Assembly (NCBI GenBank): GCA_017935565.1
Contig: JAGBHK010000022.1
Span: 124,001-188,000 of the forward strand
From: Lachnospiraceae bacterium
GTDB taxonomy: Bacteria > Bacillota > Clostridia > Lachnospirales > Lachnospiraceae
Direction: 5' to 3'
Length of the DNA: 64,000 bases
Shown here: positions 8,560 through 25,814 of the stretch, one piece after another
Position numbering within the stretch: the first letter of the stretch is position 1
Layout of the letters: each line of letters opens with the position of its first letter
Translations under genes and position numbers: made by a program
Notes under the pieces: model-generated
What the model saw: the letters and a program-made list of their open reading frames with translations, nothing else
The model's database searches: none
What the model was told of the DNA's origin: nothing

Positions 8560-10518
8560 ATGCAGTTTCAAATAGAAAAACTTATATTGTGGCCTAAAAA
8601 TCAGAAATACTCATATAAGGATATAAATTTAAATATAAATTCAGTTAATGTAATTACCGGCGATTCTCGAACTGGAAAATCAGCTATTATACCTATAATT
8701 GACTATTGTTTGGCAAGTGGAGAGTGTTATATACCAACGCAGACAATAAGGAATGCATGTAGTTGGTTTGGCGTGGTCGTAAAACTTGAAAAAAGTAAAG
8801 TTTTATTGGCGAGAAAAGAACCAGGTACACAAAAGTCAACAAGTGATATGATGTTTATTCTAGGTGAAGAAATCGAAATACCTGATATGCCAGAGAAAAA
8901 TTCAAATTGCCAGGCGGTAAAGAGATTTTTAGATGAATATGCAAGGTTGAGTTTTTTAGAAACAGAAGATTCTTACTACGGGAGGAGACCTGCATTTCGT
9001 GATTTGATGTCATTCTGTTTTCAACCTCAAAATGTGGTAGCGAATGCCAATATTTTGTTTTATAAAACGGATAAGACAGAACATAGAAATAAACTGATTA
9101 ATATTTTTCCGTATGTATTGGGAGCTATCACACCGGAGGTACTGTCAGCACGACAGGAGTTAATGGATCTACAGAGAAAATTGAAGAAGAAAGAAAGTGA
9201 TTATGAAAAGTTATGTGAATTGACCATTAGATGGGAAAATGAAATTAAGGCGTGGATTTCAGTTGCAATTGAATTGGGATTACTAGAAGAGAATAGTAGA
9301 AATATGAAATTTGAAACGCAGTTGGTATTGCTTCAAGAAATAGTCAAAGATAATACAGAAGATAAGATAATTAAGGGCAATGGAATAATTAAGAGTTCAG
9401 AAGAAATAGTAATGTTAAGAGAAACAGAGAATGAATTGGCTATGGAACTTACAAAATATAAAAATCGCCATATTGAAATGTCTCAATTAATGAAAAGTGT
9501 TTCAGATTATAGAGATGCACTTTCGATACAAGTGGAGCGCTTAAATATTACCGAATGGTTAGATGAGAAAGCAAAAAAAGAGAATATATGTCCTGTGTGT
9601 CAACAGAAATGTTCTGACGCTAGTCAAAGAAATATATACCTAAGCAGATTAGAAGACAATAGAAAGAAAAAGAAACATGTAGAAGAAATTCCAGCAGCGT
9701 TTGAAAGAGAATATGATATGGTAAAAGGCCAGATTCAAAGATTGACAGATGAACTGGTTGCTGTTCAAAAAAGAATTAGAATCGAGGAAAATAAATTTAA
9801 ACAACTAAGAGAGAATGAGGAAGCTAATCCTAGTAGATATACATTGGATGGAATTTCAAGATTCCTAGGAAAAATCGAATATGCCAGTGAAGCTGTTGCA
9901 TCTTTGGAGGCTGATGGCGAATTATCATCAGAGATAGCAAATCTTCGAGAAAGAATTGCAGAATTAAAAAAGATTGCAGATGAATCTGTAATTAAAAAGA
10001 AAATTGAAAATGCAATTACAAAGATATCGGTGAAGCAGATGGAATTATTAAAGTTAATGGATGCAGAACGTCCAGATGATCCGTTTAGGTTAGATTATAA
10101 GAATTTGACTGTAGAAGTAGATGGGGGAGAGGGTAGAAAAGATTATCTATGGGAAATTGGCAGTGGTTCAAACTGGTTAGCTTACCATGTTTCAACTATA
10201 TTAGGTTTGCAAGAGTTTTTCTCCACTTTTCAGTCATCGGTTCCTAATTTTGTTGTATTTGATCAGCCAAGTCAGGTGTATTTTCCTCATAGTTCAACAG
10301 ATGATGATGAAGTACAAGATTTGGGAGACCTAGATAGAGAGGCTGTAAAGAGTATATTTACAACTATGACAAAATGTATAGCGAATGTTAACTATAATAT
10401 GCAGATTCTTGTATTAGAACATGCCGATTCGTCAATATACGGTGATGTGCAAGGTGTTAATGAAGTTTGTGTGTGGAGAAATGGAGAAAAGCTTATTCCT
10501 TTAGAGTGGATACAATGA
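8560..10518 (+). CDS. ABC-3C SMC/Rad50-like ATPase (DUF3732 type)
   Basis: The 652-residue protein has an N-terminal Walker A GDSRTGKS (34-41), long coiled-coil stretches flanking a Cys motif CPVCQQKC (from Cys344) that recalls the Rad50 zinc hook, and a C-terminal ATPase half with GSGSNWLAYHVS (signature region) and a Walker B-like VVFDQPSQVYFP (Asp568, Gln569 replacing the usual Glu). FDQPSQ is typical of DUF3732 proteins, the ATPase of many ABC-3C systems. It presumably senses invading nucleic acid and releases the effector at 6872. The third gene of the operon, it is followed by a strong terminator. Confidence 0.8.
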   Translation: MQFQIEKLILWPKNQKYSYKDINLNINSVNVITGDSRTGKSAIIPIIDYCLASGECYIPTQTIRNACSWFGVVVKLEKSKVLLARKEPGTQKSTSDMMFILGEEIEIPDMPEKNSNCQAVKRFLDEYARLSFLETEDSYYGRRPAFRDLMSFCFQPQNVVANANILFYKTDKTEHRNKLINIFPYVLGAITPEVLSARQELMDLQRKLKKKESDYEKLCELTIRWENEIKAWISVAIELGLLEENSRNMKFETQLVLLQEIVKDNTEDKIIKGNGIIKSSEEIVMLRETENELAMELTKYKNRHIEMSQLMKSVSDYRDALSIQVERLNITEWLDEKAKKENICPVCQQKCSDASQRNIYLSRLEDNRKKKKHVEEIPAAFEREYDMVKGQIQRLTDELVAVQKRIRIEENKFKQLRENEEANPSRYTLDGISRFLGKIEYASEAVASLEADGELSSEIANLRERIAELKKIADESVIKKKIENAITKISVKQMELLKLMDAERPDDPFRLDYKNLTVEVDGGEGRKDYLWEIGSGSNWLAYHVSTILGLQEFFSTFQSSVPNFVVFDQPSQVYFPHSSTDDDEVQDLGDLDREAVKSIFTTMTKCIANVNYNMQILVLEHADSSIYGDVQGVNEVCVWRNGEKLIPLEWIQ

Positions 10519-11490: not shown

Positions 11491-12759
11491 ATGAAAAGAA
11501 TAATTGTTTCGATTGTTTTGCTTTTTACTATTCTGTTGGTAGGATGTGACGAAAAGCAAGAAAAAGATAGAAAATTAGATTCTATAGCGGACCATGGTAT
11601 TGAAACAGTTGAGAAACCTAAAGGGGTAACAATGGTAACAGATGTGGACAAATTTGTGATAGTAACGGATGATCAAAAATATGATATCAATAGAGACGAT
11701 TCTCTTACTGTCAGAAGTGAGTACAGTATAGCCGAAAGTGAAAATGCATATTATTTTGTAGAAGGATATAGTCTGTATTTTTATGATAAAGAAACAGAAG
11801 AATATCTTATAGCATGTAATAAGCCTGATTGTGAGCATGCTGATGAGGGAGAAGAGTGTAATGCATACATATGTACAAATGATTATAATGCTATTCAGTA
11901 TTATGATGGATATATTTATTATGTTGTAAGGGAAAGTAATGATTTTAACTTATATAGAAAGTCTGTTGAAGCTGGAACGACAGAGAAAGTATTAAATATT
12001 GTCAATGTAGAACAAAGAGCATCAGGACAATCGAATATGCAGATATGTTGGATATTACATAGAGGATACATATATTATGTAGGTCAGTTTGGTTCGGGAA
12101 TTACAGAAGACAGTTATTATTTAAATTATAGTAATTGTTTGGCAAGAATTAAATTGGAAGCTGATTCAAAATCTGAAATTCTGATGGCATTACCTGCTGA
12201 ATGTATGATGATAAATCCACATTTAGTAAATATACAAGCGAGTGGTTCATATGTTTATTTTGTTTCACCGTACTATAATGAAAAGGTTAAAGATATGGTA
12301 AGTGATGTATATAGATACAATACAGAAGCTAATCATATTGAAAGACTTGATATAGGTGAAGTAAGTTGGATGAATTATATAGTGTCAGAAAATAGAGTCT
12401 ATTATAAAAGGTCTGATAGTAGTGATAGACTTTATGCTTATGATGTAAATACTAATACGAGTAAGGAATTTGTTAGAACCGAAGATGGAAAGGATATATC
12501 ATCTATACTACCATATAAGGGCGGAATAATGGCTACAATACAAGAAGATTGTTGTTATGGTAAGGATGGAAACCTAGAAAATATCATAGAATCTATTGAA
12601 AATACAAATGTAGATAAGTGCTTATACCTTGGCGGAGATAAGGAAAAAGTATTCTTTCAAGTGGATTACACATTAGAATATGCACAAGAGATAGGAATGT
12701 ATTCAAGTATCGCCTATTATGATATGAAGACTAAAGAATATGTTATTTTGAATAAGTGA
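11491..12759 (+). CDS. Lipoprotein, beta-propeller-like (DUF5050-type)
   Basis: The 422-residue protein starts at ATG 11491 behind AGGAGA. A lipobox LLVGC (Cys at about 19) marks it as a membrane-anchored lipoprotein. Repeated segments of the kind YYDGYIYYV, HRGYIYYVGQ, SGSYVYFVSPY and SENRVYYKR suggest a beta-propeller. CNKPDCEHADEGEECNA (near 110) is a Cys/His cluster often seen in extracellular propeller lipoproteins of Lachnospiraceae. It overlaps the promoter-proximal end of the permease gene region by sharing TGA/GAGG. It may capture or shield against the secreted product at 11035; that is inference from position. Confidence 0.7.
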   Translation: MKRIIVSIVLLFTILLVGCDEKQEKDRKLDSIADHGIETVEKPKGVTMVTDVDKFVIVTDDQKYDINRDDSLTVRSEYSIAESENAYYFVEGYSLYFYDKETEEYLIACNKPDCEHADEGEECNAYICTNDYNAIQYYDGYIYYVVRESNDFNLYRKSVEAGTTEKVLNIVNVEQRASGQSNMQICWILHRGYIYYVGQFGSGITEDSYYLNYSNCLARIKLEADSKSEILMALPAECMMINPHLVNIQASGSYVYFVSPYYNEKVKDMVSDVYRYNTEANHIERLDIGEVSWMNYIVSENRVYYKRSDSSDRLYAYDVNTNTSKEFVRTEDGKDISSILPYKGGIMATIQEDCCYGKDGNLENIIESIENTNVDKCLYLGGDKEKVFFQVDYTLEYAQEIGMYSSIAYYDMKTKEYVILNK

Positions 12760-12767
12760 GGTCGTTT

Positions 12768-14987
12768 ATGGGTGAATTTGCCAGAGTTTTCACGGATAAG
12801 AGAATAATAATGGTTTCATTGATTATATTGGTATTGAATGGGCTAATGTTTTTTAATTCGGCAAAGTATGATACCTCGCAGGAAAGGGCGGGGTATTTGG
12901 TGTTTGTAGATATGTTAGAAATACAAAATAAAGAGATACAATATGAAAGAGCATTACAGCACGTTAATGATTGGAATGAAAAGAATGCTGAGTATTTTAA
13001 CAAAGCTATTGCTAATGGGCAGTATGAATATAATTATGAAGATTACTTTTCTGAAAACGAGATGAAAGAGTATTATGCCAATGCAATATATGTTGATAAA
13101 TATCAATATGTAATGGCTTACGGTGAACATATTGATTATGTAATACAAAATTCTGAAAATATGAAAAAAAGTGATATTCTTTATTCAGAAGGAAGTTTTT
13201 CAAAAGATAATATTGATAAGACTCAAAAAGATTTTGAAAAAATAAAAAAAATCAAAGTTTCAATGGGAAATGATAGGTGGATTGAAAAACTTGTAAACTA
13301 CGAATTTGTGGAATATTTGGTGCTTATTCTTATAGTTATAGCGGTAATAGTTATCCTAGATGAGAGAAAAAAGGGTCTTTGGGAGACCGTTTATGCTACA
13401 AAATATGGTCGAAGCATATTGGCTTTAAAACGAGTTGTTCTGTTGTTATCATTTTCATTTGTGGGTGTTGCTATGCTTGCAGTTGAAAACATTGTAATTG
13501 CAGCAAATTTGTCTGATGGAATTGGAGATGTATTTAGAAGTATACAGTCAGTGTCGTTATTTAAGAATGTAACCTTAGAGGCAAATATTTTGCAGTTTGT
13601 AGTACTTATGTATTTATGGAAAGTTGTGTCTTTGTCTGTTATAGGAATGTTATTTTTTATTCTTGCTACATCAATTAAAAGTTATATTGTGCCCATTTTT
13701 TTATTATTTGTTACATTGTTTGGTGAGATTTTGCTATATAAGACTCTATCAGCAACTTCAGTGTTTGGTCCGTTAAAAAACATTAATATTGTATCAGGAT
13801 TATTTAGTCAGGATGTAATGAAAAGTTATGGTAATGTAAATGTATTTGGAAAGGCAATAAATTCATACAATTGTATGATAGTTACAGCGGTTGTATTGTT
13901 TATATTACTTGGAGTATTGTTAATTGTGTCTGGTAGAAGAAAACCATTTTTAATTGGAGAAAGTATAGCTGCCAGAGTGTTAAGCAGAATTTCCTATAAA
14001 CTCAAACTATATAGACACAATAGTATGCTTATTCATGAAATGCATAAACAGTTATGGATTGTCAGAGTGCTTATTGTGTGTATATTTATGGTATTGGTAA
14101 GTGTTATGACAATGAATCTAGATGAAGTGAAATATGGATATTCTGATTATGTATATAATCAATATATGGACCTGCTTGAAGGTAAAGCGAATTTAGAAAA
14201 GAAAATGTATCTTAAAAATGAAGTAGCCAAATGGCAAAACAAATATGATGCAACATATTTAGAACTAGATAATCTTATGCAAGAAGAAGGTAGTATATAT
14301 CAAATTAACGCTTTACAAAAGAAAATGGATCAATATATGTTGTCTGTTGAAATCACAAAAGAACTTGAAGGATTGAGTGATAAACTGGCAAAACTGAAAG
14401 AAGAGGGGTATAATGCTGAATTTGTCAATGAGATAGGATACAACAATTATTTAGGAGAGAAAAGTTATGATATTAACCAGAAAACAACCATGATAAATAT
14501 GTTATTTGTAGTGTTTGCAGTATCAGGAATTTATGCATACGAGAATTCACAAAATAGTAAATTATTAACATATCCTACTAAGTATGGAAGAACAAAGTTT
14601 GTGATTGTAAAATGCGCAAGTGTTTTTATAATAACATTGTTCATTTATACAGTTTCTTCAATATCAGTATTATATGAAATAAATTACAAGTATGGTTTGA
14701 GTGGAATTGCGGCAGATGCACAAAGCTTATATTTGTTTGAAGATTTAAACTTTAAATGTCCTATTTGGGTGGTGATTATAGTAATACACGTTATGAAATT
14801 GTTGCTGTTATATGGGATGTCACTAGTTGTTATGTTTATATCTTCGAAATCAAAGAATGTTGTTACGGCTATTTTAGTATCGTCCATTATATTTATGTTG
14901 CCAGCATTACTCGTGTATATGGGATATGAGCAACTACAAACAATATCGGTGTTAGATGAACTTATGTTTACCGAAAAATGGAGGTAG
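12768..14987 (+). CDS. Large two-half ABC transporter permease
   Basis: The 739-residue membrane protein appears to be an internal duplication. Each half has one N-terminal membrane helix (near 16-36 and 425-445), a long coiled-coil-rich extracytoplasmic loop, and a cluster of membrane helices starting just before a repeated motif: YATKYGRS in the first half and YPTKYGRT in the second. ATG 12768 follows GAGG; a GTG at 12756 inside the previous stop is less likely. With the ATPase three bases downstream it should form an ABC-2-like exporter. Only one permease gene is present because both halves are fused. Confidence 0.72.
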   Translation: MGEFARVFTDKRIIMVSLIILVLNGLMFFNSAKYDTSQERAGYLVFVDMLEIQNKEIQYERALQHVNDWNEKNAEYFNKAIANGQYEYNYEDYFSENEMKEYYANAIYVDKYQYVMAYGEHIDYVIQNSENMKKSDILYSEGSFSKDNIDKTQKDFEKIKKIKVSMGNDRWIEKLVNYEFVEYLVLILIVIAVIVILDERKKGLWETVYATKYGRSILALKRVVLLLSFSFVGVAMLAVENIVIAANLSDGIGDVFRSIQSVSLFKNVTLEANILQFVVLMYLWKVVSLSVIGMLFFILATSIKSYIVPIFLLFVTLFGEILLYKTLSATSVFGPLKNINIVSGLFSQDVMKSYGNVNVFGKAINSYNCMIVTAVVLFILLGVLLIVSGRRKPFLIGESIAARVLSRISYKLKLYRHNSMLIHEMHKQLWIVRVLIVCIFMVLVSVMTMNLDEVKYGYSDYVYNQYMDLLEGKANLEKKMYLKNEVAKWQNKYDATYLELDNLMQEEGSIYQINALQKKMDQYMLSVEITKELEGLSDKLAKLKEEGYNAEFVNEIGYNNYLGEKSYDINQKTTMINMLFVVFAVSGIYAYENSQNSKLLTYPTKYGRTKFVIVKCASVFIITLFIYTVSSISVLYEINYKYGLSGIAADAQSLYLFEDLNFKCPIWVVIIVIHVMKLLLLYGMSLVVMFISSKSKNVVTAILVSSIIFMLPALLVYMGYEQLQTISVLDELMFTEKWR

Positions 14988-14990
14988 GGA

Positions 14991-15854
14991 ATGGAAAATG
15001 TATTAGAATTTAAGAATGTATCAAAGTATTATGGACAAAAAAAAGCATTGGATGATTTTTCGGTAGTACTTACACCTGGAATATATGGTTTGTTGGGAGC
15101 AAATGGAGCAGGTAAGAGTACTCTTTTAAATCTGTTGACTGACAGCATAAAAAGAACCAGTGGCGAAATAACTTTTAATAGGCGTGAGATACTTAAAATG
15201 GGAGCAGAGTTTAGAGAAAAGTTAGGATATATGCCTCAAAAACAAGGAATGTACGAGCATTACAGTGGTGAAAGGTTTTTATATTATATGGCAACCCTAA
15301 AGGGAGTGAATAAGAAGCAAGCTAAGTTGCAAATTAGTGAGTATCTTGAGCTTGTTGGATTGGAAAAAGATGCGCATAGGAAATTAGGCGGGTATTCCGG
15401 TGGAATGAAGCAAAGACTGATGTTTTGTTGTGCGCTTTTAGGAAATCCGGAGATTTTGATTCTTGATGAACCTACGGCAGGATTGGATCCGGAGGAAAGA
15501 ATTAAAATAAGAAACTATATTTCTGAAATGGCAAAGGATAAAATAGTGATTTTAGCAACTCATGTGGTAAGTGACATCGAGTGTATTTCATCGGAAATTA
15601 TGTTCTTGAAAGAAGGAAAACTTTTGGCAAAGGATACACCTGAAGAACTAATAAAATACGTTGACGATAAACTGTTTTCTATAAAGTGTGGTCGTGATGA
15701 ATTGAAGAGTTTAATAGAAAAATATCCAAAGGGGACTGTACAGCAGAGAAAGGAAGGATTGGTATACACAGTGGTTCGGGAACAATGTCCAGAAGGATTT
15801 GAGAAGTCTAGTAATGTGCCTAATTTGGAAGACGTGTATTTATATTGGTTTTAG
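14991..15854 (+). CDS. ABC transporter ATP-binding protein
   Basis: The 287-residue ATPase has a Walker A GANGAGKSTLL (near 37), Q loop (MPQKQGMYEHY), signature YSGGMKQRL, Walker B ILILDEPTAGLDPEE and switch His in ATHVVSDIE. The C-terminal 70 residues form the extension common in ABC-2 export ATPases. It follows the permease by three bases. Together with the lipoprotein it completes an exporter or immunity cassette behind the orphan agrD. Confidence 0.88.
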   Translation: MENVLEFKNVSKYYGQKKALDDFSVVLTPGIYGLLGANGAGKSTLLNLLTDSIKRTSGEITFNRREILKMGAEFREKLGYMPQKQGMYEHYSGERFLYYMATLKGVNKKQAKLQISEYLELVGLEKDAHRKLGGYSGGMKQRLMFCCALLGNPEILILDEPTAGLDPEERIKIRNYISEMAKDKIVILATHVVSDIECISSEIMFLKEGKLLAKDTPEELIKYVDDKLFSIKCGRDELKSLIEKYPKGTVQQRKEGLVYTVVREQCPEGFEKSSNVPNLEDVYLYWF

Positions 15855-15982: not shown

Positions 15983-16285
15983 ATGTACGATATAAAAGAA
16001 AGCGGAGCAAGAATAAAGAGGTTAAGAATAAAAAAAGGTGTTACACAGGAACAAATGGCAATAGATTTGGGAGTAACAACGGAAACTGTTGGAAGAATTG
16101 AAAGAGGGATAAGAGGAACATCTATAGATATGCTTTCATATTTAGCTGAATATTTTGACACAACAATGGATTATCTTGTGAATGGAAAAAGAAACGATAT
16201 GTCTAATACATTGTTTGAAGGATTGGATGATATTCAAAAGGCAAAAGTAATGGTTATTATGAAAGTGGTGATTGAAAATATATAG
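15983..16285 (+). CDS. XRE-family transcriptional regulator
   Basis: The 100-residue protein has an N-terminal helix-turn-helix (GARIKRLRIKKGVTQEQMAIDLGVTTETVGRIERG split over residues 8-45) of the lambda-repressor/XRE class, and a short C-terminal helical tail. The ribosome site is AAAGGAAC. It stands alone between the second agr-linked exporter and the inverted-repeat module, so it may regulate either; the GATAA-rich repeats at 16352 and 19871 are candidate operators. The binding target is not shown by the sequence. Confidence 0.83.
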   Translation: MYDIKESGARIKRLRIKKGVTQEQMAIDLGVTTETVGRIERGIRGTSIDMLSYLAEYFDTTMDYLVNGKRNDMSNTLFEGLDDIQKAKVMVIMKVVIENI

Positions 16286-16351
16286 TCGGTTATGGAATAT
16301 ATGGTAAAAATGAGTGGAAGTATATATAATTTTAGGGTATAATAAATGCAG

Positions 16352-16431
16352 GATAATTTATTATTATCTATTATTTTATGATAAGTAGGATAATTAAGTA
16401 TTATTCATTAAATATAGATTGATAATACGAG
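16352..16431 (+). repeat. Left arm of a long inverted repeat (promoter region)
   Basis: These 80 bases are repeated in inverted orientation at 19871-19960. The first 74 bases and the last 6 match exactly; the right arm differs only by a 10-base internal duplication. Within the arm, GATAAT-N5-ATTATC forms a small palindrome and GATAA occurs four times. It ends 42 bases before the ATP-grasp start codon, so it must carry that gene's promoter or operator. Confidence 0.85.
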
Positions 16432-16473
16432 TTCTGTTACAAAGGAAAGAATCTACAAATAGGAGATATCGCT

Positions 16474-17520
16474 ATGAACAAAAACATTTTAAAAGATTTT
16501 TATGACTATATGGAATCACAAAAGTACCCAATCAATGCAATTTTTATTTTTGTATACAACGACTACGATACATATATTGATGATCCACATTTGGAAGAAT
16601 GTTTTGATAATGTTGAAGTGCATGAAATTTTGGATGCCGTGAGCGACATATTTCAAGAAACTTTGGCATTCAATTCTGAAAAAGCATTCATTCAGTGGTG
16701 TGCTACACAAGCAATACAAGATAAAAAAATATATGTATATACAATGGCTCAATATATTGAAGGATTTGGGCGCAGGACATTAATTCCTGCATTATGCCAA
16801 TATTATGGTTTTATTAATATCAACGCAGATGCATACATGTCTGCATTAGGTTGTAATAAGGAAACAATGTATAAATTATTAGCAGTAAATAATATGTCAG
16901 ACATATTGGCTCCTACTGTTTTTATAAATCAATACCAAAATATAGATTACAAGTACATTCGTTCAAAGTTAGGCGCTCATGTTGTTTTGAAACCTATAAA
17001 CGAATCTTGTTGCATAGATATAGCCATATTAGAAAATTATACAGAAAGTGATTTATATTATCATACAAATCAACTTTTAAATAAATATGGCCACGCTATG
17101 CTACAGAAATACATCGACGGCAAAGAAATAGGAATTACAGTACATTTTCATAAGCAAGAAATGTGTACACTCCCCCCTGTACAAATAGTTTTCCCTTACG
17201 GCAAGAAGCATCTAACTCATATTGATAGTTTTTATGAAAATTATCAATTAGTTCACTATAATGTGCCTCAAGATTTGCTTGAAAAATGTAAAAGTATGAG
17301 TTATGCACTAGAATTTTTCTGTACCACAAGATTTGATTTTCGTTATGACGGGGAAAAATATTATCTTTTTGATCTAAGTCCTAATCCAACAGTAAATGGT
17401 TATACAAGTAGCAATTATGCAGCCCGTTCAGCCCTAAAATCTGATCATAGAGGTATTTTACGATTAATGGCTTATGAAAAAATATCATTATTCGAACCAT
17501 CTTTCAATTGGACTCATTAA
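16474..17520 (+). CDS. ATP-grasp protein, D-Ala-D-Ala ligase-like
   Basis: The 348-residue protein starts behind TAGGAGA. The C-terminal two thirds look like an ATP-grasp enzyme: AHVVLKPINESCCI (Lys of the ATP-binding strand, near 172), MLQKYIDGKEIGITVHFHK (near 207-225) and TTRFDFRYDGEKYYLFDLSPNPTVNG (near 288-310), where D-Ala ligases have the metal-binding E-x-N-x-N/P segment. Here it reads FDLSPNP, so Asp replaces the first Glu. The N-terminal 100 residues are not recognised. A peptide or amino-acid ligase is likely; the substrate is unknown. It is convergent with, and overlaps by 33 bases, the gene on the other strand. Confidence 0.62.
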   Translation: MNKNILKDFYDYMESQKYPINAIFIFVYNDYDTYIDDPHLEECFDNVEVHEILDAVSDIFQETLAFNSEKAFIQWCATQAIQDKKIYVYTMAQYIEGFGRRTLIPALCQYYGFININADAYMSALGCNKETMYKLLAVNNMSDILAPTVFINQYQNIDYKYIRSKLGAHVVLKPINESCCIDIAILENYTESDLYYHTNQLLNKYGHAMLQKYIDGKEIGITVHFHKQEMCTLPPVQIVFPYGKKHLTHIDSFYENYQLVHYNVPQDLLEKCKSMSYALEFFCTTRFDFRYDGEKYYLFDLSPNPTVNGYTSSNYAARSALKSDHRGILRLMAYEKISLFEPSFNWTH

Positions 17521-19845
17521 GTATAACTGATTATAACAAGGTATGTTATTAGAATTATTTTTGAAAGATGCAAACTCTGCTTTTCCCATATTTTCTTTCA
17601 TCCACTTGAATTTTCTATGAAATAGAGTAGAATCAGGTTTCAGCAATTTGGGAATAAATATTTTTCTATAAATCATCTCAAAATCTTGCGAATTGTTTTT
17701 AGTAAAATAATGCGCTAACAGATTGTGAAGTGCATAAAATTTGTTGTAGGGATTTCCTTTTTCAAGGATTTCCCTTAATTTTTTGATTCCACATTCCTCA
17801 TTTTGTTGGAACATAAGCTGAGCTGTAGCCCAATTGTTTTCTATAATAAATTTATCGCTATAACTCATATCTTTTTCTAGAATTTTTGACACAGCATACA
17901 GATAATCTGTAATGCTTATTTTCTTACATTTTAACTGAACTAGATAATAATTGTTTAAGTATCCACAATAAGTATCAATATTTATATTTTCCAAAAAATC
18001 TAAATCCACTTTTTCCAAAAGTTTTTCAGCTGCATCATATTTCTCTACCTCAATTAAGTATCCACTATAATTAATACGAGCCAGTTCTTTAAGAACGCTA
18101 CTAGTTTCAGAAGATAAATAAAGATTTTGAAGTATATCCCCCGCATTGTCATATGACATACTAAATGCTAATAAATCAATTCTTGAAAAGCCTCTTAAAT
18201 GGTTTTCCTTAATATACATACAAAAGTTGTCATCATTACGCATTTTTTGTATATCATTCATAAACCTTCTTGATGTTCGCTCATTTGTATCTTCATCCTC
18301 TAAGGAAAGTGCTATATACTGGCATTTGAAGTGCCCCTGCCAATACTTGCTATAATTATCTTTATTATCAATTTCCAAAATTTTTGCACAGAATTCTCTC
18401 AATACATCAGAATAACTTATCAAAGGATAATTTATGTAATTTTCTTTTAAGAATTGCAAAAGCATTACATAGCTTGCACACGTAGCAATACTATCTAATG
18501 TATCATTAAGCAATTTTTTTATAATATCCATCATGTCTATAGAGAATTCGCCATTTCGCCTATTCCTAAAGTATTCATACATGCTAATAATTGTAATTGA
18601 GATGGAGTCTTTTGAACTATAGCAAATATAATCCTTATAATTGACATATCCTTTTTCTATTTTTCGATAGTAATATCCACAAACAACCAATGACTGTTTA
18701 TCCTTATAATCCGATAATGATGTATCTATTTGCAAAACCTTTAGCGCTGGCAAATAGTCAAATGGAAAGAATTTTCTAAAATATGTAAAGATATCCTCCG
18801 GCATTGGTTGCAAATCATATATATATTTATTTGAAAAATATTGTTTGAATGAATCTATTTTATAAAAATAGGTTGGAGTAATGTATTTAGAAGATTTCTC
18901 TCTACCTAGAATAGCTAGTTTATACGCTACTTCTAGATTATCAGACTCTAATACATTTTTATGAAATTTTTGGATTTCCACTTTTGAGAATCGATGTTCA
19001 AAAAAACTGACAAACTCTAATAACGGATAAAGTTCCTTACTAGTAATATCGCTCCTATTTATTATTTGTGTGATAATCCAATCCATTTTTTGAAGCCAAT
19101 CAAATGTTTGATTTTGCACTTCAGAAAGAGCTTCAAAGTACATGTAGTTATCTATAAAGAACTGTAGTCCAAATTTTCTGACTAATGTAATATTTTTTTT
19201 GACAGACTCATTAATTAGTATATTCTTTCTTTTGGCAATAAAACTTAAATCATTCTCTGATAATTGAAATAACGGAATGTGTTCAATTTTTGTTTCAATC
19301 CCCAAATTTAACAGTCTTATTTGTTCACCAACAATTAGTAAAAATGTATTATTTATTCTACCTGATTTTATAAATTTGCAAAGTAGCCTTAAACAACTAA
19401 GATCTTCATCTGACTCTATATCATTTTCTTCTACACGAATAACAAATTTTATTTTTTTATATTTGTGAGGGAATTTTTTTACCTTTAAGTATTTTAGGTA
19501 TTCTTTCTCTTTATCTATGCCCAAATAAATATTTTCTGCATTACCAAGAATTGTTGATATAGAAGTACGCGCATCTATTTTTTGAGTTGCGTTTAATATA
19601 AAGGTTCCAATCGCGGCAAGAATATGTAATATTCGAAAACCGATGTTTTTACCGGTATGACCTTTTAATTGCTTAAAATTTAATAATTCTATTTTTTTGT
19701 ATCTAGATAAGATTGCAAACTCTGCGCCAAAATGACCATCATGTTTGTAGAAAATAATACGATTCGATTTTTTTTCGTGTTCTCTCATATAGTCTATAAA
19801 CTGCGCTTGGGTTGCACTTAAAATATCCCATGAACCATTATTCAT
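17488..19845 (-). CDS. Large NTPase-like/TPR protein with degenerate P-loop
   Basis: The 785-residue protein starts at ATG 19845 behind AAAGGAG; an in-frame TTG 48 bases upstream is less likely. The N-terminal 250 residues have the look of a STAND/AAA NTPase: a hydrophobic strand then KHDGHFGAEFAIL where a P-loop would be, a strand KKIKFVIRVEEND (Walker B-like), and TFLLIVGEQIRLL ... LSENDLSFIAKR (sensor-like). The Gly-Lys-Ser/Thr is missing, so ATP hydrolysis is doubtful. The rest is helical repeat-like (for example YDAAEKLLEKVDLDFL). It shares its upstream region with the ATP-grasp gene. Family not recognised. Confidence 0.5.
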   Translation of the reverse strand: MNNGSWDILSATQAQFIDYMREHEKKSNRIIFYKHDGHFGAEFAILSRYKKIELLNFKQLKGHTGKNIGFRILHILAAIGTFILNATQKIDARTSISTILGNAENIYLGIDKEKEYLKYLKVKKFPHKYKKIKFVIRVEENDIESDEDLSCLRLLCKFIKSGRINNTFLLIVGEQIRLLNLGIETKIEHIPLFQLSENDLSFIAKRKNILINESVKKNITLVRKFGLQFFIDNYMYFEALSEVQNQTFDWLQKMDWIITQIINRSDITSKELYPLLEFVSFFEHRFSKVEIQKFHKNVLESDNLEVAYKLAILGREKSSKYITPTYFYKIDSFKQYFSNKYIYDLQPMPEDIFTYFRKFFPFDYLPALKVLQIDTSLSDYKDKQSLVVCGYYYRKIEKGYVNYKDYICYSSKDSISITIISMYEYFRNRRNGEFSIDMMDIIKKLLNDTLDSIATCASYVMLLQFLKENYINYPLISYSDVLREFCAKILEIDNKDNYSKYWQGHFKCQYIALSLEDEDTNERTSRRFMNDIQKMRNDDNFCMYIKENHLRGFSRIDLLAFSMSYDNAGDILQNLYLSSETSSVLKELARINYSGYLIEVEKYDAAEKLLEKVDLDFLENINIDTYCGYLNNYYLVQLKCKKISITDYLYAVSKILEKDMSYSDKFIIENNWATAQLMFQQNEECGIKKLREILEKGNPYNKFYALHNLLAHYFTKNNSQDFEMIYRKIFIPKLLKPDSTLFHRKFKWMKENMGKAEFASFKNNSNNIPCYNQLYLMSPIERWFE

Positions 19846-19870
19846 TTGTTTCTCCTTTGCGGCAAATAAT

Positions 19871-19960
19871 CTCGTATTATCAATCTTTATCAATCTATAT
19901 TTAATGAATAATACTTAATTATCCTACTTATCATAAAATAATAGATAATAATAAATTATC
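19871..19960 (-). repeat. Right arm of the long inverted repeat (promoter region)
   Basis: Reverse complement of 16352-16431 with one extra 10-base unit (ATAAAGATTG), a tandem duplication of the adjoining ATAGATTG-ATAA sequence. It ends 25 bases before the start codon of the minus-strand gene. Outside the repeat the flanks are unrelated. Duplicated control DNA upstream of both convergent genes implies matched regulation. Confidence 0.85.
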
Positions 19961-19965
19961 TATAT

Positions 19966-20338
19966 GTAAGGGGAATATCTTTATAATATCAATTATGTTA
20001 TAAAAAGTGTTAGTTACATTTAGTAGTGCACTTGAGTAATTGTATTTTCAAAACTAGGTAAAAAATGGTGATAATCATATAGAAATATTGGATTTATATT
20101 ACGAAATATGGTAAAATATCTACGTATGATAAGTTCGTGTGGAACAAATTTAGGACAAATGCATAAGATTAAGAACTGAATTGAAAGACAAATTGTAAGA
20201 AGGAAGAAAGGTCTGAAGTGATTTACTTTAGACTTATGGTTGGTAAGCATAACAATATGTAGAATAAGAGGGATGAATAATGGAGATGAGAAGTGTATAA
20301 CAGAGGAAATAGTACAGAAATAAAGAGAGAGGAAATAT
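19966..20338. other. Gene-free stretch
   Basis: No convincing gene is seen here. A long minus-strand frame crossing 20020-20535 has no ribosome site and runs into the next gene. A weak imperfect hairpin (GTCTGAAGT / ACTTTAGAC) lies near 20211-20232. Promoters for the gene at 20339 must lie here but no clear hexamer pair stands out. Confidence 0.4.
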
Positions 20339-20767
20339 ATGGGAAGAGTTTCTAATATGAAAATTCGTGAAGAAAATGCAAATTTCAACAAATTATTATC
20401 ATTAAGAGTCGGAGTGCTTGCAATGGCTGAGATTGCATTGGCAATAGTGGCAGATATAACTTGTATAATATTCAATTGTAGATATATTGATTTTTGTGTA
20501 GGAATAATATCTGCTATTATAGTGTTATATGGCATAAATTGTAAGTGGATTGCGAGGATAAAGAATAAAGAGGTTTTACAAAATATGATTGATTATTCAA
20601 CGGGGCTATCAATTACAATGTTTGCATTAGAAAAAATGATTGTTGGATATGTAGAAAGTATGGATAATAAAGTGATGGTAGTAAGTATGCTAGTAGCATA
20701 TTTGATTAGTTTAGTATCTTTTTTATTATATTGCTCAAGAAAAAAATGGAAATACAAATTTGATTAA
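20339..20767 (+). CDS. Small four-helix membrane protein
   Basis: The 142-residue protein starts at ATG 20339 behind AGAGAGGA. Four hydrophobic segments are visible (about 24-45, 49-68, 86-102, 115-135), with a basic C-terminus (CSRKKWKYKFD). No family is recognised. It lies 41 bases before a soluble 580-residue protein in the same direction; in a defence-rich neighbourhood such a membrane protein plus large partner could be an effector pair, but that is inference. Confidence 0.55.
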   Translation: MGRVSNMKIREENANFNKLLSLRVGVLAMAEIALAIVADITCIIFNCRYIDFCVGIISAIIVLYGINCKWIARIKNKEVLQNMIDYSTGLSITMFALEKMIVGYVESMDNKVMVVSMLVAYLISLVSFLLYCSRKKWKYKFD

Positions 20768-20808
20768 TTTCAATATATTAATAGGTTATTATAAGGGAGA
20801 AGTGTTTT

Positions 20809-22551
20809 ATGATAGTTGATTTTATTGTTGAAATAGGTTTAGAAGCAGTTAAAGACAAAATATGTGATGTAAAAGAATTGAACGACATTCGATGTAGATT
20901 AAAAGAATTTGTCGAGAGACAAGCTTATGTAAATGAACAATGTAGTACGGAAGAGGAATTTGATTTTCAAGGTTTGGTAGAATACATAAAAAAGGATTTG
21001 GTAAATGATGTGCAAATTCGATTGTTTGGTGATAGAAAAGAGCGTGGAATGGCAAGGGAAACTATAATTAGTAAAGCCATAGCTTATTCTCAGGCAAACA
21101 ATACATTGTCACGTAGAAGGGCAACAGAAATAATAGACAATGCGATGAATATATTACGAGATTTTTATAAGAAAAAGGTAAATAGAGATTGGAAGTACAT
21201 AGCAAGTCAAATTGAAGATACTATTATTGAAGCTAATTCACAGAAAGTAGATGAACAGACAGAAGTTATTTTGGAGCGATTTGTATGTGATAAACGGGAG
21301 CTTGTGGAAGATATACAAGATGTAAAGGATTTATTAAATACAAAGTTTCCTATATCAATTGAACATAATCTGAAATTAATTAAGGATGGCTCCATAAAAG
21401 AAGCGGAAAGAAATATTGCATTAATGTTTAATGCAATTGGTAGTGCACATGATTTGTTCCCAGATTATTGTTTTGATAGAAAAAGTGGTTCAAATCAGTT
21501 GTATAGCAGACCACTTAGCAAAGATGCAATAAAAAAATATCCACCTAAGATAACATGTACAGGAACAATACAAGTTGAAGGGCGTTATATAGATAAATTT
21601 GATTGTAATACTATTGAGTATGCCAACAGACATCAGTTGCCAATAGTATTAAATGTAAAGACTGCTCAGAAGTTTTTGGGAGATGTTATTGATCCAATAC
21701 AGCATGAAGCGGATGCAATAATTGGTGAAACTATTACGATTAGTCCGAGACCATTTCCACCAGCATTTCCATGTAGTATATCATTGGATAACAATGTTGT
21801 ATTTGACTATATACTGTTTAGAACAGAAGAAATACTAGATGATGGAACGATTGTAATATCAAATTATGAGCAGAAAGATTTTCCGTTTAGGATAAAAATG
21901 AGTGTGAATTTAGAAACGAAAAAAACAACATATGTTGTTAAGACAGAAAATCCTAATAATGAAGATATGCTGAAGTATTTAAGATTTTTAAATGATGCAT
22001 CATTGGGGAAATTTATGAACATAAAAGAACTTACGACAGGAGAACCGCTTGCAAGTGGTAAGCTAGGAGATTTTTATTATAAAACTGGTTTTGAGTCTAT
22101 TACAGAGGAATTAAATTTTATTGAAAGTATAGTTGCTATTGAACATTATTTTGATGAAAAGCTCGAGATTCCAAAAGAAATTAGTGAGGATGATTTTGAT
22201 ACGATTAACTACTTGGCAACCTTAATAAAAGGGGATGAGAATATCGGAAAATGGAGTAAATTGGATTTTAATATGAAACTTACTGAGGAATTGAAGTCTA
22301 AAATATTAAAAATTGACGATGTACCATTTAGCCTTTCGTATGTTGGCAGTATTAGTTTTAATGTATGGAACAAAGTGTTCGATTTACCGGCAATCAGGTC
22401 ATTTGATTCTGTAAAGTATCAAAATCCTGAAAAACTCAAGCTGAAATCTGAAGTATTGGATATAGGTGATGACATTAAATTGAGCTTTTTACCATATAAT
22501 GAGGAAAGTGGAACTTGGAGAGATATGTTATATACTGAAAATGTTAAATGA
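20809..22551 (+). CDS. Unrecognised 580-residue protein
   Basis: The protein starts at ATG 20809 behind AAGGGAGAAG. Residues 1-170 are helical and charged and recall the helical N-terminal adaptor segments of NACHT-type and other defence proteins. Residues from about 200 contain strand-rich sequence with many acidic and aromatic residues (KITCTGTIQVEGRYIDKFD, TISPRPFPPAFPCSISLD). No nucleotide-binding, nuclease or protease motif is seen and there are no membrane segments. A perfect terminator hairpin follows. Its partner is probably the small membrane protein upstream. Confidence 0.5.
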   Translation: MIVDFIVEIGLEAVKDKICDVKELNDIRCRLKEFVERQAYVNEQCSTEEEFDFQGLVEYIKKDLVNDVQIRLFGDRKERGMARETIISKAIAYSQANNTLSRRRATEIIDNAMNILRDFYKKKVNRDWKYIASQIEDTIIEANSQKVDEQTEVILERFVCDKRELVEDIQDVKDLLNTKFPISIEHNLKLIKDGSIKEAERNIALMFNAIGSAHDLFPDYCFDRKSGSNQLYSRPLSKDAIKKYPPKITCTGTIQVEGRYIDKFDCNTIEYANRHQLPIVLNVKTAQKFLGDVIDPIQHEADAIIGETITISPRPFPPAFPCSISLDNNVVFDYILFRTEEILDDGTIVISNYEQKDFPFRIKMSVNLETKKTTYVVKTENPNNEDMLKYLRFLNDASLGKFMNIKELTTGEPLASGKLGDFYYKTGFESITEELNFIESIVAIEHYFDEKLEIPKEISEDDFDTINYLATLIKGDENIGKWSKLDFNMKLTEELKSKILKIDDVPFSLSYVGSISFNVWNKVFDLPAIRSFDSVKYQNPEKLKLKSEVLDIGDDIKLSFLPYNEESGTWRDMLYTENVK

Positions 22552-22602: not shown

Positions 22603-23526
22603 TTATTTAACTGTTAGATTTTTTCGTGGATGCTTTGTGGTCAATATATCCTTTTGTTTAGCCATATTAACATGAGTATATATCTGCGTAACACTAATAG
22701 AGCTGTGCCCAAGCATTTCCTGTATATATCTAATATCAACATCTTCTTCAAGTAAAAAGGTGGCAAAAGAGTGTCTGAACATATGAGGGGTTATATGGAG
22801 CGTAATGTTTGCAAGTCTGCAATATTTCCCTATTATATTGCGTACGGATTGTTCAGATAAAGGATTTCCGAAGTTGTTTACAAAAATACGATTACATTTG
22901 TGAATGTCACGATTATATTCTAAGCAATATCTTGTAAGTAAGTTGAAAACATCATCGTTTCCAATTTGTATCTTTCGTTCTTTAGATCCTTTCCCATATA
23001 TTAATATTTCTTTATCATATGAATTGAAATCATCCGGTGACAGGTGGCACAATTCTGAAATTCTTATTCCGGTGGCAAAAAGTAATTCGATAACGGCTAT
23101 ATCACGGAGGATATGTTTCTTTTGAATATCTGTTTTTGCATTGGAGTAGTGCTGATACATGGTTGTTAAGAGCGTTTCAATCGTATGTAAAGGTATTGTT
23201 TTGGGTAAAAGTACAGGTTCTCGAAATTTTATCTGCATTTTGTCAAAGGGATTGATTTCTATAATGTCCTTATACATCAGATAGTGAAACAAAGCCTTTA
23301 ATGAAGCGATTTTTCGTTTAACTGTTTTAGGCTTATATGTTTCATGCAGATAAACGATGAATGTTTCCAAGCAGCATGTTGATATGTTATCAATAGGGAT
23401 GTTTGGATGCTTCTCTATGAATTGCTTCAAATCAATAGAATAAGCTTTTAAGGTTTTAGCATCCAATCGCTTCTGGTTCTGACAAAATATCAAGTATTCA
23501 TTAATTGTGTTCTGTAGTAATTCCAT
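22603..23526 (-). CDS. XerC/D-type tyrosine recombinase
   Basis: The 307-residue protein has an N-terminal SAM-like core-binding domain (residues 5-85) and a catalytic domain with the expected residues: Arg in FATGIRISELCHL, Lys in GKGSKERKIQI, HMFRHSFA (His-x-x-Arg), LGHSS and the nucleophile Tyr in QIYTHV. It starts at ATG 23526 behind AAAGGAG. It acts on DNA in site-specific strand exchange. It is distinct from the Tn916-like integrase at 25815, has no excisionase partner beside it, and is transcribed toward the defence cargo. It could be an element integrase of a nested island. Confidence 0.87.
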   Translation of the reverse strand: MELLQNTINEYLIFCQNQKRLDAKTLKAYSIDLKQFIEKHPNIPIDNISTCCLETFIVYLHETYKPKTVKRKIASLKALFHYLMYKDIIEINPFDKMQIKFREPVLLPKTIPLHTIETLLTTMYQHYSNAKTDIQKKHILRDIAVIELLFATGIRISELCHLSPDDFNSYDKEILIYGKGSKERKIQIGNDDVFNLLTRYCLEYNRDIHKCNRIFVNNFGNPLSEQSVRNIIGKYCRLANITLHITPHMFRHSFATFLLEEDVDIRYIQEMLGHSSISVTQIYTHVNMAKQKDILTTKHPRKNLTVK

Positions 23527-24752: not shown

Positions 24753-25165
24753 AAAAAAATAAAAAGCAACAGACAGAGAATGTTCGCTGTGTTGTAATAT
24801 TAGCATCTAATGAAAAGGAATCTATTGATAAAGCAGCTTTAAAAGAAAATAAGCAGTTAAGATATATTAATGAGTATGCAAATGCACATGGATTGATAGT
24901 GACCAAAATTGTACGAAAGGGATGTTTTTCGATAAATGTAGTTGAAGGGATGTTTACGTATTGTGTAGAACTGCTTAAACAAGGAATAGCAGAAGCTGTG
25001 TTATTGGCTAATATGTATTATATTGGGCGTGATGAGTTTGACATATATAATAAGGTGGGATTGATTAGAGGTAGTGGCTTTAGGATATTTACTGTTGATG
25101 ATGGTGAACTAATGTTGAATATTCATCCGATTAAAAGAAAAGTGGTGAACAAGTATGAAAGATAG
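24749..25165 (+). CDS. Resolvase N-terminal-like protein without catalytic residues
   Basis: The 138-residue protein has the strand-helix pattern of a serine resolvase N-terminal domain: VRCVVILASNEKES, then QLRYINEYANAHGLIVTKIVRKGCFS, then LLKQGIAEAVLLANMYYIGRDEFD and a final strand FRIFTVDD. The usual Tyr-x-Arg-x-Ser is replaced by ILASN and the Arg pair of the active site is not clear. No DNA-binding domain follows. It overlaps both neighbours and so is part of a tight operon with XRE and MazF genes. Confidence 0.6.
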   Translation: MKKNKKQQTENVRCVVILASNEKESIDKAALKENKQLRYINEYANAHGLIVTKIVRKGCFSINVVEGMFTYCVELLKQGIAEAVLLANMYYIGRDEFDIYNKVGLIRGSGFRIFTVDDGELMLNIHPIKRKVVNKYER

Positions 25166-25523
25166 AGAAAAATTGATTAGAGGAGACGTGATATGGGTTA
25201 ATTTGGGGGAACATCCGGTAAGTCATGTTCATTCAGGACAAAGACCGTGTATAGTTATTAGTACCAATAAAAGCAATGGACATGTTTATACAGTTATACC
25301 TGGTAGTTGTAAAATGGAAAAGAGGCAATTACCAATGCATGCAATATTATATCCTAAGGAATCAGGGTGTGGATTGTCTAGAAAGACGGTGTTTATGGCA
25401 GAACAAGTAACTACTGTGGACAAAAAACAAGTGTTGATAAAGGTTGGGCATATACCGGAAGAGTCGGATACTTGGTCAAGAATCAATGACATTATTATTA
25501 GACAGTTGGATATGGGAGTGTAA
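25155..25523 (+). CDS. PemK/MazF-family endoribonuclease toxin
   Basis: The 122-residue protein shows the family features: RGDVIWVNLG at the start, GQRPCIVIS (the conserved Arg-Pro segment), YTVIPGS and the C-terminal strand KVGHIPEESDTWSRINDIIIRQL. Family members cut mRNA at short sequences. No canonical antitoxin gene lies immediately upstream: the preceding overlapping gene is resolvase-like. The XRE protein at 24501 or an antitoxin elsewhere may neutralise it. The gene overlaps its upstream neighbour by 11 bases. Confidence 0.85.
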   Translation: MKDREKLIRGDVIWVNLGEHPVSHVHSGQRPCIVISTNKSNGHVYTVIPGSCKMEKRQLPMHAILYPKESGCGLSRKTVFMAEQVTTVDKKQVLIKVGHIPEESDTWSRINDIIIRQLDMGV

Positions 25524-25796: not shown

Positions 25797-25814
25797 ATGA
25801 AGGGGGTTGACAAT

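What the first reader, a model, noticed from the sequence alone, without database searches (positions are those of the whole stretch)
16352..19960. Convergent two-gene module bracketed by near-perfect 80-90 bp inverted repeats
16352-16431 is repeated inverted at 19871-19960 with only a 10-base tandem duplication as difference. The repeats lie directly upstream of the two start codons, so an ATP-grasp enzyme and a large NTPase-like protein are transcribed toward each other from the same promoter DNA, and their genes overlap by 33 bases at the ends. The repeat flanks differ. This looks like a self-contained, co-regulated unit, perhaps mobile or invertible, and I do not recognise it as a described system.
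Basis: partly seen in the sequence, partly recalled or inferred. Interest (0 to 1): 0.8.

Follow-up and report, generated by a model that had tools for sequence, protein, structure and literature searches.

The report
Invertible two-gene switch, gut bacteria
The two genes sit head-on in a DNA segment that a nearby enzyme most likely flips, so that only one of them at a time lies behind a fixed promoter; the same kind of switch recurs in related gut bacteria and sometimes carries both halves of a known anti-virus defence.

Summary
The repeat is real: 16352-16425 and 19887-19960, 74 nt, 100% complementary, bracketing two convergent genes that overlap by 33 bp. The arms carry 19-bp palindromic cores (GGATAA-N7-TTATCC type). 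Relatives of the window's tyrosine recombinase (22603-23526, -) stand beside the same architecture: from 116 recombinase loci (36 + 80, at least four repeat records) I defined 32 cassettes, window included; 82 of 116 gave no arm pair, at least 31 of those cut by a contig end. Genes are strictly convergent in 31 of 32. Cargo varies but partners stay together: ATP-grasp with TPR/STAND-like proteins, PLP enzymes or glycosyltransferases with large partners, TIR with SIR2 (Thoeris-like, three loci). A sigma-70-like signal lies outside one core in 19 of 32 loci, outside both in none; in the window (weakly) it faces the ATP-grasp gene. In two relatives contig ends fall exactly on arm edges, as expected if both orientations were sequenced. 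Best reading: an inversion toggle that swaps which of two partner genes is expressed. Inversion in the window itself and the cargo's role are inferred. The papers searched hold no description that I found.

The parts
16352..16431 (+). left inverted-repeat arm (74 nt identical to the right arm, plus inner part)
19871..19960 (-). right inverted-repeat arm with a 10-nt tandem duplication
16351..16369 (+). outer core site GGATAATTTATTATTATCT, likely crossover site; the same core borders the cassette in L095, whose recombinase is 84% identical
19943..19961 (-). outer core site of the right arm, AGATAATTTATTATTATCT
16388..16406 (+). inner core-like site GGATAATTAAGTATTATTC
19906..19924 (-). inner core-like site GGATAATTAAGTATTATTC
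16474..17520 (+). ATP-grasp enzyme of the D-Ala-D-Ala ligase kind; on the side of the putative promoter in the assembled orientation
17488..19845 (-). 785-aa partner protein: N-terminal part of unknown fold, no P-loop recognised, C-terminal helical (TPR-like) repeats
17488..17520 (.). 33-bp overlap of the two convergent 3' ends (33 bp in L010, 24 bp in L166)
16338..16343 (+). TATAAT 7 bp outside the left outer core (poor -35 GTGGAA, spacing 18, p about 0.07); putative fixed promoter
   Evidence: not among the sites listed by the generic scan
22603..23526 (-). tyrosine recombinase (307 aa) of the family found beside such cassettes; presumed invertase
15983..16285 (+). small HTH protein just outside the left arm; possible regulator, role unknown
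   Evidence: generic HTH matches

Best explanation
A site-specific DNA inversion switch. The tyrosine recombinase at 22603-23526 recombines the inverted GGATAA-N7-TTATCC-type cores in the two arms and flips the about 3.6-kb segment. A fixed promoter outside one arm (left, in the window) then reads either the ATP-grasp gene (assembled state) or the 785-aa TPR-like partner. Because the genes are convergent and overlap at their 3' ends, transcription of one runs into the other antisense, so expression should be mutually exclusive. Shown: arms, cores, conserved partners, a recombinase with its conserved active-site residues, opposite orientations of homologous cassettes, contig-end patterns of mixed orientation in two relatives. 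Inferred: that this recombinase flips this segment, that the promoter is active, that the other gene is silent, and that the pair is a conflict (probably anti-phage) system in which one protein is an enzyme, perhaps a signal maker, and the other a sensor or effector.
For: Arms and overlap. Same pair with arms and adjacent recombinase in L166 (proteins 52% and 62% identical; arms 125 nt, 100%) and, distantly, L010 (arms 53 nt, 81%; 33-bp overlap). Exact core pattern, built from two of them, in 6 of 250 family genomes, reversed control in 0 of 250; four of the six lie at cassettes, two (G104, G016) are unassigned. 32 cassettes defined from 116 recombinase loci, 31 of 32 strictly convergent. Overlap in 18 of 31 cassette pairs against 29 of 171 control pairs, p 5e-6. 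Promoter-like signal on the far flank 14 of 32, near flank 5 of 32, both 0 of 32 (about 3 of 32 per side expected). Opposite orientations in 5 of 12 cassette groups, including a TIR/SIR2 pair 77%/74% identical. Contigs end within 300 bp of the recombinase 3' end in 25 of 80 loci (5 of 80 at the 5' end). In G397 contigs C84, C14 and C83 break exactly on the edges of a 24-bp arm with 119-bp overlaps; G399 likewise with 141 bp. Thoeris-type cargo.
Against: No reads or second assembly of the window's own strain: inversion there is not shown. The window's recombinase is 2.6 kb from the right arm with two unrelated genes between; in 30 of the other 31 cassettes the arm lies near it partly by selection (700-bp limit). 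82 of 116 recombinase loci gave no arm pair; at least 31 of them are cut by a contig end near the recombinase, the other 51 or so were not examined one by one. The window promoter is weak by score (p about 0.07), 13 of 32 loci show none on either flank, and the near-flank count (5 of 32) is hardly above chance. The generic scan lists one promoter-like site at the inner end of the right arm facing the large gene (19893-19866, 9 of 12). In Thoeris both genes are reported to be needed together, which sits badly with strict alternation. 7 of 12 cassette groups show one orientation only; in the five ATP-grasp cassettes with an assigned promoter the enzyme is always the promoted gene.
Confidence: 0.8

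Rival explanations
1. Both genes are co-expressed from identical promoters inside the arms; the arms stay identical for regulatory reasons and inversion is incidental.
For: Inner arms of 10 of the 29 pairs measured are long (45-163 nt, 92-100% identical), as is the window's (74 nt): longer than a core needs. The generic scan lists a promoter-like site at the inner end of the right arm facing the large gene (19893-19866). Thoeris partners are reported to be needed together (PMC7272460, passages).
Against: 19 of 29 arm pairs are 19-34 nt with some start codons 22-45 bp further in, leaving little room for a promoter; promoter-like signals outside the cores are one-sided. The generic scan of 16200-20400 found 31 sites against 32.1 expected, so single sites carry no weight.
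Confidence: 0.15
2. Cassette exchange: the inverted cores serve mainly for swapping whole cargo cassettes between genomes at a fixed expression site (integron-like or recombinase-mediated exchange); orientation is a by-product.
For: L095 has a recombinase 84% identical to the window's and the same outer core, but other cargo; cargo varies widely while the recombinase family is kept.
Against: 28 distinct spacers among 31 loci would limit exchange; contig-end patterns point to one cassette in two orientations. Compatible with switching rather than exclusive of it.
Confidence: 0.25
3. Assembly artefact or isolated duplication in a fragmentary genome.
For: The window's assembly is estimated 81% complete in 45 contigs; large inverted repeats can be misassembled.
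Against: The same pair with arms and recombinase is present in L166 and L010; 32 cassettes overall.
Confidence: 0.02

Closest known systems
Phage Mu G segment / P1 C segment (Gin, Cin)
   Same: An inverted segment holds two alternative gene sets; inversion chooses which set lies behind a fixed outside promoter (recalled; Mu papers seen only in a search listing).
   Different: Serine invertase, constant coding part outside, tail-fibre genes (recalled); here a tyrosine recombinase, complete genes, enzyme/partner pairs.
Tyrosine-recombinase inversion switches (RecV of C. difficile, Bacteroides promoter switches, pneumococcal PsrA/hsdS)
   Same: Recombinase, inverted repeats, phase variation (starts of abstracts in the listings; enzyme class partly recalled).
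   Different: Those move a promoter or reshuffle gene parts; here two whole partner genes exchange places beside a fixed promoter.
Thoeris anti-phage defence (ThsA/ThsB)
   Same: Three invertible cassettes (L073, L113, L115) carry a SIR2-STALD ThsA (E 1e-59 to 1e-100) and a TIR-type protein; the TIR proteins of L073 and L113 match the ThsB model, that of L115 does not.
   Different: The two genes are convergent inside an invertible segment; the window's own pair is not Thoeris.
D-Ala-D-Ala ligase family (ATP-grasp)
   Same: Profile match to Ddl structures (E 6.7e-31) and an invariant R-x-D-x-R stretch.
   Different: NCBIfam Ddl models match far below their cut-offs; 62% and 29% identical to its own kind in L166 and L010, 14-19% to the other cassette ATP-grasps; substrate unknown.

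Membership tests
Site-specific DNA inversion system (tyrosine recombinase) | Recombinase with conserved catalytic residues | tested here: met
   R155, K179, H248, R251, H274, Y283 invariant in 19 aligned sequences; their catalytic role is recalled
Site-specific DNA inversion system (tyrosine recombinase) | Inverted sites with identical crossover spacer | tested here: met
   Outer cores 16351-16369 and 19943-19961 share the spacer; the 31 other pairs kept also held a shared-spacer core (up to 4 of 12 fixed bases mismatched allowed, two re-anchored)
Site-specific DNA inversion system (tyrosine recombinase) | Both orientations present in a population | tested here: inconclusive
   Indicated by contig ends in relatives G397 and G399; no data for the window's strain
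Site-specific DNA inversion system (tyrosine recombinase) | Recombinase acts on these sites | not testable with these tools
   Needs an in vivo or in vitro inversion assay
Thoeris | ThsA (SIR2 + SLOG/STALD) with TIR-domain ThsB | tested here: not met
   The window pair gives no PADLOC hit; met by L073 and L113, and for ThsA by L115
Mu/P1-type alternation segment | Convergent alternative genes, one promoter outside | tested here: inconclusive
   Convergence 31 of 32; one-sided promoter-like signal in 19 of 32, window p about 0.07; promoter activity not testable here
Mu/P1-type alternation segment | Serine invertase and shared constant N-terminal coding part | tested here: not met
   Tyrosine recombinase; window arms lie outside both coding regions when the ATG at 19845 is used
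Anti-phage defence system (window pair) | Protection against phage | not testable with these tools
   Suggested only by Thoeris-like and TIR cargo in sister cassettes

The most novel reading that the evidence does not exclude
A recombinase family of Lachnospiraceae and relatives carries two-part immune systems in invertible segments, so that signal-making enzyme and sensor/effector are never transcribed together; only after a flip, when the old protein persists and the new one appears, are both keys present in one cell. The window's ATP-grasp/TPR pair would then be one of several unknown two-key defence systems.
Probability: 0.3. Interest if true: 0.92.

Novelty: new variant of a known kind. 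Interest (0 to 1): 0.8.

Why it matters
If right, it gives a marker (recombinase family plus GGATAA-N7-TTATCC cores) that points to undescribed two-gene systems by their setting alone, some of them beside recognised immune proteins. It raises a directly testable question: why would the two halves of a Thoeris-like system sit on a switch that seems to promote only one at a time? It would also add the choice between whole partner genes to the known kinds of inversion switch.

Tried and rejected
Viral contigs: P0001, P0002 and the window recombinase gave no relatives. The window pair has no PADLOC match and only sub-threshold Pfam matches; the HTH neighbour has generic HTH matches only. Structure of the 785-aa protein: mean pLDDT 42 from two sequences, too poor for a fold search, so none was run. 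Profile comparison with three STAND/TPR-type partners gave probability 1%, with the 561-aa partner family 51% over part of the C-terminal repeats. I therefore do not call it an NTPase.

L077 and L088 were added by core match and the window by hand, because one search missed them (the window's arm is more than 700 bp from its recombinase). L067 holds an ATP-grasp/561-aa pair upstream of its recombinase but no arm pair was found. L165 and L166 cores were re-anchored. Promoter p-values use mononucleotide shuffles (200 per locus); the near-flank hit in L163 lies about 40 bp from the core, at the recombinase 3' end. The grouping L077/L121 is by type only (23% identity); in the SHMT group one search found only the enzyme similar across all three. 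L161 holds a distant ATP-grasp relative near its recombinase and was not followed up.

The weak ATP-grasp hits G024, G193 and G203 look like other Ddl-type genes; I saw no such partner beside them. G398 was not counted as evidence of mixed orientation, because the assembler's k is not known.
Full report
OBSERVATION. The inverted repeat is present as described: 16352-16425 and 19887-19960, 74 nt, 100% complementary, then a 10-nt tandem duplication in the right arm. The arm matches only these two places in the host assembly. The ATP-grasp gene (16474-17520, +) and the large gene (17488-19845, -) overlap by 33 bp.

THE PROTEINS. The 348-aa protein is an ATP-grasp enzyme of the D-Ala-D-Ala ligase kind: NCBIfam D-Ala-D-Ala ligase models reach 4.5e-10, far below their cut-offs, and a nine-sequence profile finds Ddl structures from E 6.7e-31. 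R286, D288 and R290 are among the seven residues invariant in those nine. The 785-aa protein has no Pfam match above cut-off, no PADLOC match and no PDB sequence match. A model from two sequences is poor (mean pLDDT 42; only roughly 570-740, helical repeats, is passable). Part of its C-terminal repeats resembles, weakly, the 561-aa partner of another ATP-grasp cassette (hhalign probability 51%). I call it TPR-like, not an NTPase.

CO-OCCURRENCE. The pair is rare: at E 1e-3, relatives of the large protein in 2 of 250 and of the ATP-grasp in 5 of 250 family genomes, the window's own included (three of the five look like other Ddl-type genes); with two-row profiles at E 1e-10, 2 of 397 each. In the three complete loci seen both are there: the window; L166 (a Roseburia MAG; 52% and 62% identity, 24-bp overlap, 125-nt arms at 100%); and, distantly, L010 (G096; 23% and 29%, 33-bp overlap, arms 53 nt at 81%). 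G042 holds the large gene with a core in front, but its contig ends inside the gene, and the ATP-grasp profile found nothing in that genome.

THE RECOMBINASE AND THE CORE. In L010 the two genes adjoin a tyrosine recombinase 58% identical to the window's 22603-23526. Arms of window and L010 share a 19-bp palindrome, GGATAATyAAGwrTTATyC; G042, not used to write it, has it with one mismatch in front of the large gene. A slightly relaxed exact pattern matched 6 of 250 family genomes, the reversed control none; four of the six lie at cassettes (G000, G096, G042, G028), two (G104, G016) are unassigned. The recombinase family (E 1e-60) is in 33 of 250 genomes, 36 matches.

THE CASSETTES. In 32 loci (window included) I could define a pair of inverted cores beside the recombinase. 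82 of 116 loci gave none: 25 of the 80 and 6 of the 36 end within about 300 bp of the recombinase 3' end, two are repeat records or coreless pairs dropped as told in Tried and rejected, and the rest were not examined singly. In the arm pairs kept, a core with an identical central stretch was found each time, while spacers differ between loci (28 distinct in 31), as expected of tyrosine-recombinase crossover sites. In 31 of 32 the genes inside are strictly convergent (L116 is the exception). Overlapping 3' ends: 18 of 31 cassette pairs against 29 of 171 other convergent pairs in the same loci (Fisher p 5e-6; simple ORF calling).

CARGO. Partners recur together: ATP-grasp with TPR/STAND-like proteins (window, L010, L166; L053, L075, L079; by type only L077, L121), SHMT-like PLP enzymes with large partners (L055, L088, L137), PLP enzyme and alcohol dehydrogenase with NTPase-like (L059, L072), carbamoyltransferase-like with large REase/AAA-like (L058, L064), glycosyltransferase-like with large REase-like (L152, L165) or with nucleotide-binding-like proteins (L112, L135), radical-SAM/ATP-grasp with pentapeptide proteins (L074, L103, L169), aminotransferase-like with pentapeptide proteins (L087, L095), TIR with kinase-like (L163, L174), TIR with SIR2-STALD (L073, L113, L115). 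Pfam supports the domains named for L055 (SHMT), L058 (AAA, and Mrr just under its cut-off), L059 (ADH; NB-ARC under its cut-off), L073, L074, L087, L115, L163 (TIR) and L169; the large partners of L055 and L165, the L112 protein and the L095 enzyme gave no Pfam hit at the thresholds used, and those labels, like the glycosyl-, carbamoyl- and aminotransferase ones, are read by eye or recalled. Three loci hold a ThsA (E 1e-59, 1e-60, 1e-100) beside a TIR-type protein; the TIR proteins of L073 and L113 match the ThsB model at about 1e-12, that of L115 matches only other TIR models.

WHERE THE PROMOTER IS. A sigma-70-like signal within 45 bp outside the core reached p<0.1 on the flank far from the recombinase in 14 of 32, on the near flank in 5 of 32, on both in none; about 3 of 32 per side are expected by chance, so only the far count stands out. 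Of these 19, 12 have an exact TATAAT, 11 of them 6-17 bp from the core. In the window TATAAT at 16338-16343 is 7 bp outside the left core (p about 0.07): the ATP-grasp gene is on the promoter side. L095 has a similar TATAATAAAT and the same outer core but other cargo. The generic scan neither lists this site nor finds more sites than expected (31 against 32.1), and it lists one inside the right arm facing the large gene. A hairpin resembling a terminator follows the recombinase in L095 and in the window (read directly).

DOES IT FLIP? (a) Homologous cassettes lie in opposite orientation relative to the recombinase in 5 of the 12 groups (L073 against L113 and L115; L163/L174; L112/L135; L152/L165; L053 and L079 against L075) and in one orientation in 7. 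Insertion in either direction could also give this. (b) Of 80 genome contigs contigs, 25 end within 300 bp of the recombinase 3' end, 1 between 300 and 1000 bp, 17 between 1000 and 8990 bp; 5 end within 300 bp of the 5' end. A core (up to 3 mismatches) is in 20 of those 25 tails against 45 of 325 control stretches, and three more contigs end inside a core. (c) In Lacrimispora amygdalina src4 (recorded as an isolate, not as a MAG) the recombinase contig stops at the inner edge of a 24-bp arm, the 3528-bp cassette contig starts with its last 119 bases and stops at the outer edge of the other arm, and the far-flank contig ends 119 bases after the arm begins. That looks like a branch in an assembly graph with k near 119; a 24-bp repeat alone should not cause it, so reads of both orientations were probably present. 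G399 (a sheep MAG) shows the same at 141 with a 27-bp arm. This is inference from contig ends, not from reads, and does not concern the window's strain.

MECHANISM AND RIVALS. The simplest account is a toggle: inversion chooses which of two partner genes stands behind a fixed promoter, and the 3' overlap adds antisense interference. The gene on the promoter side differs between relatives (TIR in L073, SIR2 in L113). In the five ATP-grasp cassettes with an assigned promoter (window, L053, L075, L079, L166) it is always the enzyme. The difficulty is that both Thoeris genes are reported to be required (PMC7272460, passages seen). Carry-over of the old protein after a flip, low basal expression, or division of labour in the population could resolve it; none is tested. 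Cassette exchange may operate as well.

KNOWN OR NEW. Literature searches (open-licence PubMed Central papers only, no bioRxiv; listings capped) showed nothing that describes such cassettes. I saw listings with starts of abstracts, and passages of two papers (PMC12529663; PMC7272460). Inversion switches as such are known, hence 'new variant of a known kind'. On checking I corrected the share of loci without an arm pair (82 of 116) and the Thoeris E-values; I left the odds as they were, since the case rests on the defined cassettes and the contig ends.

Noticed in passing
window 8560-10518: 652-aa DUF3732 protein matching the LmuB (Lamassu) model at E 1.3e-123: a defence-like gene lies upstream of the switch.
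   Followed up: no
window 20339-22551: 142-aa and 580-aa genes without recognised domain between the right arm and the recombinase; outside the window's own records no relatives in the fetched loci; apparently an insertion relative to L095.
   Followed up: partly
window 25797-26945 and 25155-25523: A second tyrosine-integrase-like gene (382 aa) and a MazF-like protein (names recalled), suggesting a genomic island.
   Followed up: no
window 12756-15854, L010 16491-19161, L068 13249-16264: Related ABC transporter genes (ATPase 49-52% identical) read into the far arm in three loci, one of them with different cargo.
   Followed up: partly
L081 5464-5788 / 7276-7600: A recombinase of the same family lies inside a 325-bp, 91% inverted repeat formed by two flagellin-like gene starts (name recalled), which suggests flagellin phase variation.
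   Followed up: no
L116 9977-15567: The one cassette that is not strictly convergent: ATP-grasp, NTPase-like, TIR-type and aminomutase-like genes (partly recalled names).
   Followed up: no
L095 12910-16002: 1030-aa protein with a SIR2-like start (VPFIGAGMS, recalled motif) beside the far arm.
   Followed up: no
L185 1-3528: Lacrimispora cassette: 290-aa GHMP-kinase-like protein (recalled) and 823-aa P-loop protein, overlapping by 6 bp.
   Followed up: partly
L161 12515-13363: Distant ATP-grasp relative (27% to that of L010) about 2.6 kb from a recombinase of the family, near the contig end.
   Followed up: no
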